Origin: Anaerobacillus isosaccharinicus
GTDB taxonomy: Bacteria > Bacillota > Bacilli > Bacillales > Anaerobacillaceae
Reading direction: 5' to 3'
DNA length: 64,000 nt
Assembly (NCBI RefSeq): GCF_001866075.3
Contig: NZ_CP063356.1
Location: 3,834,164-3,898,163, forward strand
The notes beneath the pieces are model-generated. The model was not told where the DNA came from and made no database searches. It saw only the letters and a list, made by a program, of their open reading frames with translations. Every line of letters begins with the position of its first letter. Positions within the stretch are counted from its first letter, which is position 1. Below are positions 45,240-45,267 of the stretch, in pieces. The position numbers were made by a program, and so were the translations under genes.

Positions 45240-45267
45240 GGTACGCATAATATATATTATGTAAACT
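45240..45267. other. Candidate dif site (chromosome dimer resolution, replication terminus)
   Basis: The last 19 of 28 positions, AATATATATTATGTAAACT, equal the centre and XerD arm of the B. subtilis and S. aureus dif sites as I remember them. With the S. aureus form the match runs over 21 consecutive bases. The left (XerC) arm GGTACGCAT differs but keeps partial dyad symmetry with the right arm. It lies between two terminators, next to a tyrosine recombinase gene, and at the point where gene orientation switches from + to -. Confidence 0.75.

What the first reader, a model, noticed from the sequence alone, without database searches (positions are those of the whole stretch)
45240..45267. Candidate dif site and replication terminus at a strand switch, next to xerS
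AATATATATTATGTAAACT equals the core and XerD arm of the B. subtilis and S. aureus dif sites as I recall them. To its left nearly every gene is on +, to its right most are on -, which is the pattern where leading strands meet. The adjacent recombinase is the single-recombinase type XerS, not XerC or XerD. The XerC arm is divergent (GGTACGCAT). A XerS gene lying beside a XerCD-like dif could be an intermediate between the two resolution systems.
Basis: partly seen in the sequence, partly recalled or inferred. Interest (0 to 1): 0.75.

Follow-up and report, generated by a model that had tools for sequence, protein, structure and literature searches.

The report
XerS taking over a dif site
The bacterium's chromosome-separating site sits next to a spare recombinase gene, and comparison with relatives suggests that this spare enzyme has repeatedly replaced the usual two-enzyme system, with this genome caught at an early stage.

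Summary
Window 45240-45267 is a 28-bp dif (11-6-11), the only match found in a 5.23 Mb single-contig Anaerobacillus-like chromosome. It lies about 1 kb from the GC-skew switch, roughly opposite dnaA. The xerS stop codon is 57 bp away; intact xerC and xerD lie elsewhere. The divergent left arm is not an XerS signature: same-genus genomes without xerS over the family cut-off have similar arms.

The linkage recurs across Bacillales. Of 397 genomes, 43 carry this XerS group. xerC is missing or broken in 29 of these 43, against 2 of 354 others (one frame-shifted copy, one incomplete genome); on the XerS tree at least 8 changes. In 40 of 41 XerC-minus sites the dif left arm no longer scores as an XerC arm, and it often mirrors the right arm. 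XerD catalytic residues then decay (13 of 25 against 0 of 16); in Sporolactobacillus the nucleophile is phenylalanine in 5 of 9. One complete genome shows XerS but no XerC or XerD match.

Best reading: XerS joined the classical dif system and can replace XerC, then XerD catalysis. The window is a stage where all three coexist. Biochemistry is untested. My literature searches listed no report of this in Bacillales.

The parts
45240..45250 (+). dif left half-site (XerC side), GGTACGCATAA, genus-type arm
45251..45256 (+). dif central region, TATATA
45257..45267 (+). dif right half-site (XerD side), TTATGTAAACT, kept in XerC-plus and XerC-minus relatives
45325..46419 (-). xerS, 364-aa tyrosine recombinase with the R, K, H, R, H, Y residues; reads toward dif, stop codon 57 bp from it
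45278..45315 (-). hairpin followed by a U-run just after xerS (terminator-like), between xerS and dif
   Evidence: fold z -4.0; not in the stricter consensus list
45181..45223 (+). hairpin after the left-hand gene, on the other side of dif (terminator-like)
   Evidence: fold z -5.3; not in the consensus list
44106..45125 (+). last plus-strand gene before dif, looks like a UDP-glucose 4-epimerase (name from recall, not searched); marks the strand switch

Best explanation
The 28-mer is the working dif of this chromosome at the replication terminus. The adjacent xerS is a resident third chromosome-dimer recombinase that acts at this same site. In this genome XerC, XerD and XerS coexist. XerS makes XerC dispensable: in related lineages xerC then decays, the dif left arm is released from XerC and is reshaped toward an inverted copy of the right arm, and XerD loses catalysis but is often kept, probably as a DNA-binding protein (SMC unloading is my suggestion). 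End state: XerS alone resolves dimers at a dif descended from the classical one. Shown: site, position, gene content, linkage, repeated xerC loss, site change, XerD active-site decay. Inferred: that XerS binds and recombines this site, the order of steps, and the role of the retained XerD.
For: Unique site near the skew switch, roughly opposite dnaA. An exact TTATGTWAACT lies within 2 kb 3' of xerS in the window's orientation in 24 of 43 genes of this XerS group and 40 of 62 further named loci, against 0 of 43 in a distant XerS group; on the 5' side at most 1 per set and orientation. Genes around dif are not shared between G000 and G001, G002 or G004, while the xerS-dif pair is present in G000, G003, G005 and G006. 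xerC missing or broken in 29 of 43 against 2 of 354 others. xerC absent, eroded or remnant at its usual place before hslV in 20 of 20 XerC-minus regions read. XerC-arm score separates XerC-plus from XerC-minus sites. XerD catalytic residues intact in 16 of 16 XerC-plus and degenerate in 13 of 25 XerC-minus genomes. G312: only XerS at E 1e-15 with the XerC family, no XerD-family match at 1e-70.
Against: No binding or recombination data. In one search, 18 of 40 XerC-plus and 10 of 51 XerC-minus rows had no right arm (up to 1 mismatch, expected orientation) within 2 kb of xerS. G312 and G154, without XerC/XerD matches, show no recognisable site, so the XerS-only site is not identified where it would be most telling. 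Palindromy varies: the mirrored-arm score separates the two groups only weakly (p 0.02). Genomes are related: on the XerS tree the independent-pairs test of XerC loss against site change has 7 pairs, 4.6 same way, 0 opposite, 2.4 no difference, p 0.06. G038 has a frame-shifted xerC without this XerS. 12 of 25 XerC-minus genomes keep a fully intact XerD active site. In the window genome XerC and XerD look intact, so XerS could be idle there.
Confidence: 0.73

Rival explanations
1. XerS replaces only XerC: XerS binds the left arm and XerD still binds and cleaves the right arm, as a hybrid pair.
For: The right arm is nearly invariant (G and T at positions 22-23 in 41 of 41 XerC-minus sites) and XerD is kept in 27 of 29 XerC-minus genomes of the order set, with intact catalytic residues in 12 of 25 read.
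Against: XerD loses catalytic residues in 13 of 25 XerC-minus genomes read, including tyrosine to phenylalanine in 5 of 9 Sporolactobacillus-genus copies, and the YTH motif at the tyrosine drops from 16 of 16 to 3 of 25 (counted by eye from its listing). G312 and G154 have no XerD match at 1e-70. Perfect palindromes suggest one specificity.
Confidence: 0.2
2. The right arm near xerS survives only as an XerD binding site for SMC unloading; the dif is dead in XerC-minus genomes and XerS has its own separate site or another job.
For: XerD is described as a sequence-specific SMC unloader at the terminus (PMC12322038 passages); many XerC-minus left arms are only partly mirrored.
Against: AC at positions 6-7, mirroring GT at 22-23, in 25 of 41 XerC-minus sites and 0 of 22 XerC-plus; 11 of 11 palindromes in G005, G006 and Bacillus sp. 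FJAT-29814; the site lies 39-77 bp from xerS in the Neobacillus-type XerC-minus rows L300, L314, L323, L324, L330, L331, L339, L340, L343, L344, L348-L350, L353, L356.
Confidence: 0.12
3. xerS is a mobile integrase that happens to target dif (IMEX-like) and plays no part in dimer resolution.
For: XerS relatives occur on plasmids, one of them 69% identical (pBpOF4-01); an XerS-superfamily integrase is reported in a B. cereus mobile element with a difSL-like site (PMC4876114 passages).
Against: No second dif-like copy found in this genome, so no element ends; repeated xerC loss in XerS carriers; catalytic residues invariant in 15 aligned XerS.
Confidence: 0.06
4. Plain XerCD dif with a coincidental xerS neighbour.
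For: XerC and XerD intact in the window genome; XerC dN/dS 0.05-0.11 against three same-genus copies, with dS near saturation.
Against: The same linkage recurs across families: 24 of 43 against 0 of 43 in the distant XerS group.
Confidence: 0.04

Closest known systems
XerCD / dif of Bacillus (CodV/RipX)
   Same: 28-bp 11-6-11 site at the terminus, same core and XerD arm, XerC and XerD present
   Different: A third recombinase, XerS, is linked to the site; in relatives it stands where xerC is gone and the XerC arm is rewritten
XerS / difSL of streptococci and lactococci
   Same: XerS family by HMM, about 360 aa, gene next to its site at the terminus
   Different: Site is not the 31-bp difSL with an 11-bp centre (PMC5357621 passages) but a classical dif or its rewritten descendant; XerC and XerD coexist in the window genome
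Lactobacillus helveticus DPC4571 (XerCD plus XerS)
   Same: Coexistence, with xerS near the skew switch, called a possible evolutionary intermediate by Kono et al. 2011 (PMC3025954 passages)
   Different: There no dif could be assigned to XerS; here the linked site, a series of states and XerD active-site decay are seen
XerH/difH and XerL of Legionella
   Same: Single-recombinase resolution; palindromic site (PMC9765430 passages)
   Different: Different recombinases; xerL is more than 400 kb from dif in L. pneumophila (same passages)

Membership tests
XerCD/dif | 28-bp site, two 11-bp arms and a 6-bp centre | tested here: met
XerCD/dif | single copy at the skew switch opposite the origin | tested here: met
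   (skew from the window and 20 samples)
XerCD/dif | intact XerC and XerD in the genome | tested here: met
   XerD 404.8 bits (cut-off 329.6), XerC 352.4 bits (cut-off 335.15); catalytic residues
XerCD/dif | polar motifs and translocase control (SRS, SpoIIIE/SftA) | tested here: inconclusive
   GAGAAGGG (recalled motif): 1 in the window and 2 in the 20 samples
XerS/difSL | XerS-family recombinase | tested here: met
   NF003462, 404.9 bits against 267
XerS/difSL | gene immediately beside its site | tested here: met
   57 bp between dif and the xerS stop codon here; recurrent in relatives
XerS/difSL | 31-bp difSL with 11-bp centre | tested here: not met
   the site beside xerS is 28 bp of XerCD type
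XerS/difSL | XerC and XerD absent | tested here: not met
   both present here; no match at 1e-70 in relatives G312 and G154
XerS/difSL | XerS recombines at its site | not testable with these tools
   needs biochemistry
IMEX at dif | second dif-like copy bounding an element | tested here: not met
   single match in the genome

The most novel reading that the evidence does not exclude
Bacillales hold a natural series of takeovers of the XerCD/dif system by one recombinase, XerS, at the ancestral site: coexistence (window), broken xerC, rewritten dif arm, catalytically dead but retained XerD, and finally XerS alone. The dead XerD would be a natural separation of its recombinase role from its second role at the terminus.
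Probability: 0.65. Interest if true: 0.85.

Novelty: new variant of a known kind. Interest (0 to 1): 0.76.

Why it matters
How a two-enzyme system acting at one essential site can be replaced by a single enzyme without losing dimer resolution is open. Here several states exist in living species, some within one genus, so the order of steps can be tested. The catalytically dead XerD proteins offer a direct test of whether XerD is retained for a non-recombinase role such as SMC unloading.

Tried and rejected
Left-arm divergence as an XerS signature: rejected, because Anaerobacillus genomes without XerS over the cut-off have similar arms. Palindrome scan of the 900 bp after xerS: many hits look like terminators; useful only with the right-arm motif. 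SRS motif polarity: too few motifs. Reading the 420 bp after xerS in G312, G154, G022, G066, G100, G178 and G203 gave no convincing site by eye. Mirrored-arm score as a separator: only weak (p 0.02); the XerC-arm score and the AC dinucleotide separate better. The XerC-arm score was trained on 43 sites that I picked by hand from the capped listing, meant to lie outside the close XerS group; three are Anaerobacillus arms. Two rows counted as XerC-plus sites (L304, L316) are probably chance half-sites and were left in. XerS phylogeny against streptococcal chromosomal XerS was not done (none fetched). Two papers on the questions, Karaboja 2021 and Le Bourgeois 2007, are not held; nearest solved chains are XerD-, XerA- and XerH-type; not used further.

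Full report
OBSERVATION. The 28-mer GGTACGCATAA TATATA TTATGTAAACT is at 45240-45267. The window is C1:3834164-3898163 of a single 5,227,144-bp contig. A 22-mer covering inner left arm, core and right arm, allowing 3 mismatches, hits once in the genome. GC skew in the window flips beside it: cumulative maximum at 46304, with a plateau from about 45.25 kb. Of 20 sampled 10-kb stretches, 10 of 10 on the dnaA-to-dif arm are positive and 9 of 10 on the other arm negative; dnaA is at 1,444,565. ORFs of at least 100 aa are 35+/2- on the left and 2+/15- on the right. dif lies in a convergent gap between two hairpins that fold better than shuffles (z -5.3 and -4.0), probably terminators; the stricter consensus scan did not list them.

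RECOMBINASES. The neighbour (45325-46419, minus; stop codon 57 bp from dif) is XerS, NF003462, 404.9 bits against a cut-off of 267. The genome also has XerD (404.8 bits, cut-off 329.6) and XerC (352.4 bits, cut-off 335.15). All three have R-K-H-R-H-Y. XerC shows dN/dS 0.05-0.11 against three same-genus copies, with dS near saturation. I call the genus Anaerobacillus from the closest named records (A. arseniciselenatis, 90% identical XerS, on a contig of the same length as that of G005).

THE LEFT ARM. In the same genus, G001, G002 and G004 have no XerS over the cut-off but have dif with GGTGCGC, GGTCATC and GGTCATC. G004 has a 164.5-bit XerS-like gene about 38 kb from its dif. The divergent arm is therefore a genus trait.

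LINKAGE. Among 397 genomes of the order, 80 have XerS over the cut-off, 86 genes. All 86 were fetched. They split into a group at 468-800 bits against the window XerS (43 genes in 43 genomes; one, G278, is cut at a contig end and has a stop) and a distant group at 164-326 bits (43 genes). An exact TTATGTWAACT in the window's orientation lies within 2 kb 3' of xerS in 24 of 43 of the first group (3 of 43 in the other orientation; 0 and 1 on the 5' side) and in 0 of 43 of the distant group (1 and 1 on its 5' side). Genes around dif are not shared between G000 and G001, G002 or G004, nor, apart from xerS, between G000 and G003 or G006; the one further match to G005 is about 30% identical (10-kb regions or less except the window).

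LOSS OF XERC. With TIGR02225 at E<=1e-70 (which in the window genome reports both XerC and XerD), 30 of 397 genomes have fewer than two matches: 28 with one and 2 with none. 28 of these 30 are in the 43-genome XerS group; G003, also in it, has an XerC with four stops inside. So xerC is missing or broken in 29 of 43 against 2 of 354 (Fisher p 4e-31, not corrected for kinship); the 354 include the genomes that have only distant-group XerS. The two: G038 has XerC as three pieces in different frames, whether real or an assembly error I cannot tell, and G206 is 80% complete with no hslV found. Stops inside second copies were not listed for most of the 354. G005 and G006 are 80% and 62% complete, but their xerC locus was read (below). 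In 48 named genomes searched (of 80 loci), 21 had one match and 27 two; of the 27, Metabacillus crassostreae has stops in the second. Halalkalibacter okhensis, one of the 21, has a broken xerC. xerC normally lies just before hslV, after a gene I take to be trmFO (name recalled). Of 20 hslV regions of XerC-minus genomes read, G003 holds an eroded copy, G005 and G006 hold 24- and 33-residue remnants, and 17 hold no xerC match; in 15 of those 17 the trmFO-like gene and hslV are next to each other, and in G292 and G312 it is not in the region. Nine further XerC-minus genomes were not read there: six without an HslV match and three not fetched. Nine XerC-plus regions showed xerC in place (G001, G002, G004, G065, G177, G068, G025, G368, G272). 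On the XerS tree (90 rows plus 4 outgroup) XerC status needs 10 changes, at least 8 on supported branches.

SITE CHANGE. Sites with at most one mismatch in the right arm were taken within 2 kb 3' of xerS in the expected orientation: 22 of 40 XerC-plus rows and 41 of 51 XerC-minus rows have one. This misses XerC-plus cases such as Aquibacillus albus and B. massilionigeriensis, whose dif is in the other orientation. A score for the outer left arm, trained on 43 hand-picked sites, is above 1.5 in 19 of 22 XerC-plus and 1 of 41 XerC-minus sites (Mann-Whitney p 4e-9). The exceptions are the window site itself, two probable chance half-sites (L304, L316), and H. okhensis with its broken xerC. AC at positions 6-7, the mirror of GT at 22-23, occurs in 25 of 41 XerC-minus and 0 of 22 XerC-plus sites. 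G005 and G006 are perfect 11-bp palindromes around 6 bp; Bacillus sp. FJAT-29814 is a perfect one around 5 bp. The mirrored-arm score over all sites differs only weakly (p 0.02). On the tree, 7 independent pairs give on average 4.6 same-way, 0 opposite and 2.4 without difference, p 0.06.

XERD. In 41 XerD proteins read, R-K-H-R-H-Y is intact in 16 of 16 XerC-plus and 12 of 25 XerC-minus genomes (p 4e-4, kinship not corrected). The 25 leave out four of the 29: G203 and G226 (not read) and G154 and G312 (no match). All 11 of family f15 group with XerD, not XerC (SH-aLRT 100), and keep two upstream neighbours of XerD. The YTH motif at the tyrosine is in 16 of 16 against 3 of 25 (counted by eye from the listing). 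G312, one contig and 100% complete, shows only XerS with the XerC family at E 1e-15 and nothing with the XerD family at 1e-70; G154 (92% complete) has XerS and other integrases but nothing at XerC/XerD level.

READING. The states in one genus are G001/G002/G004 (XerCD, no XerS over the cut-off), G000 (all three, genus-type dif), G003 (xerC broken, XerD residues intact), G005/G006 (xerC remnants, palindromic dif). G003 and G000 are nearest in the XerS tree, so this is a series of states, not a lineage. With Sporolactobacillus and G312 it extends to dead XerD and XerS alone. I infer that XerS recombines at the ancestral dif. Retained dead XerD fits a non-catalytic role; SMC unloading by XerD at the terminus is mentioned in PMC12322038 (passages), which cites Karaboja 2021 (not held).

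LITERATURE. Searches, judged by listed titles and abstracts, showed no paper on XerS with XerC loss in Bacillales; 'XerS' with 'Bacillaceae' gave 0 papers. The library holds open-licence papers only, and longer hit lists were capped. PMC4876114 (passages) reports an XerS-superfamily integrase with a difSL-like site in a B. cereus mobile element, a different setting. Kono 2011 (PMC3025954, passages) flags L. helveticus DPC4571 with XerCD plus XerS as a possible intermediate. PMC2731167, PMC5357621, PMC8138268 and PMC9765430 were read as passages.

LIMITS. No biochemistry. Most genomes are known by handle only. Kinship among genomes inflates the simple tests. Some XerS genes have no recognisable site nearby, and the G312 site is unknown.

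Noticed in passing
G000:C1, e.g. 581-585 kb, 759-762 kb, 910-913 kb, 3649-3653 kb: 50 phage-integrase-domain matches in the genome, many in repeated trios with identical scores (one set at 6 places, another at 4), suggesting multi-copy transposons with three recombinases.
   Followed up: no
window 46658-47935: Next gene after xerS looks like a membrane M48-type peptidase with C-terminal ankyrin-like repeats (from motifs, recalled, not searched).
   Followed up: no
   Followed up: partly
G412:C61:4977-5480 and 7496-7999 (Halalkalibacter okhensis): Two XerS-like genes (365-aa open frames) lie close together, one beside a canonical dif, in a genome whose xerC is broken.
   Followed up: partly
Genus g15 (Sporolactobacillus-type) genomes G392, G127, G099, G271, G020, G353: 6 of the 9 genus g15 genomes searched also have no HslV match, the neighbour of the place where xerC was lost.
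   Followed up: no
L346, plasmid pBpOF4-01: A plasmid XerS 69% identical to the window's, with no dif right arm found nearby; nearly identical to the Halalkalibacter hemicellulosilyticus copy in the tree.
   Followed up: partly
L207 (G010:C1:2078600-2087800): A distant-group XerS gene with an in-frame TAG and a near-canonical dif 467 bp upstream.
   Followed up: no
G004:C20:110571-111575: A full-length XerS-like gene under the family cut-off (164.5 bits), about 38 kb from the dif of a same-genus genome.
   Followed up: no
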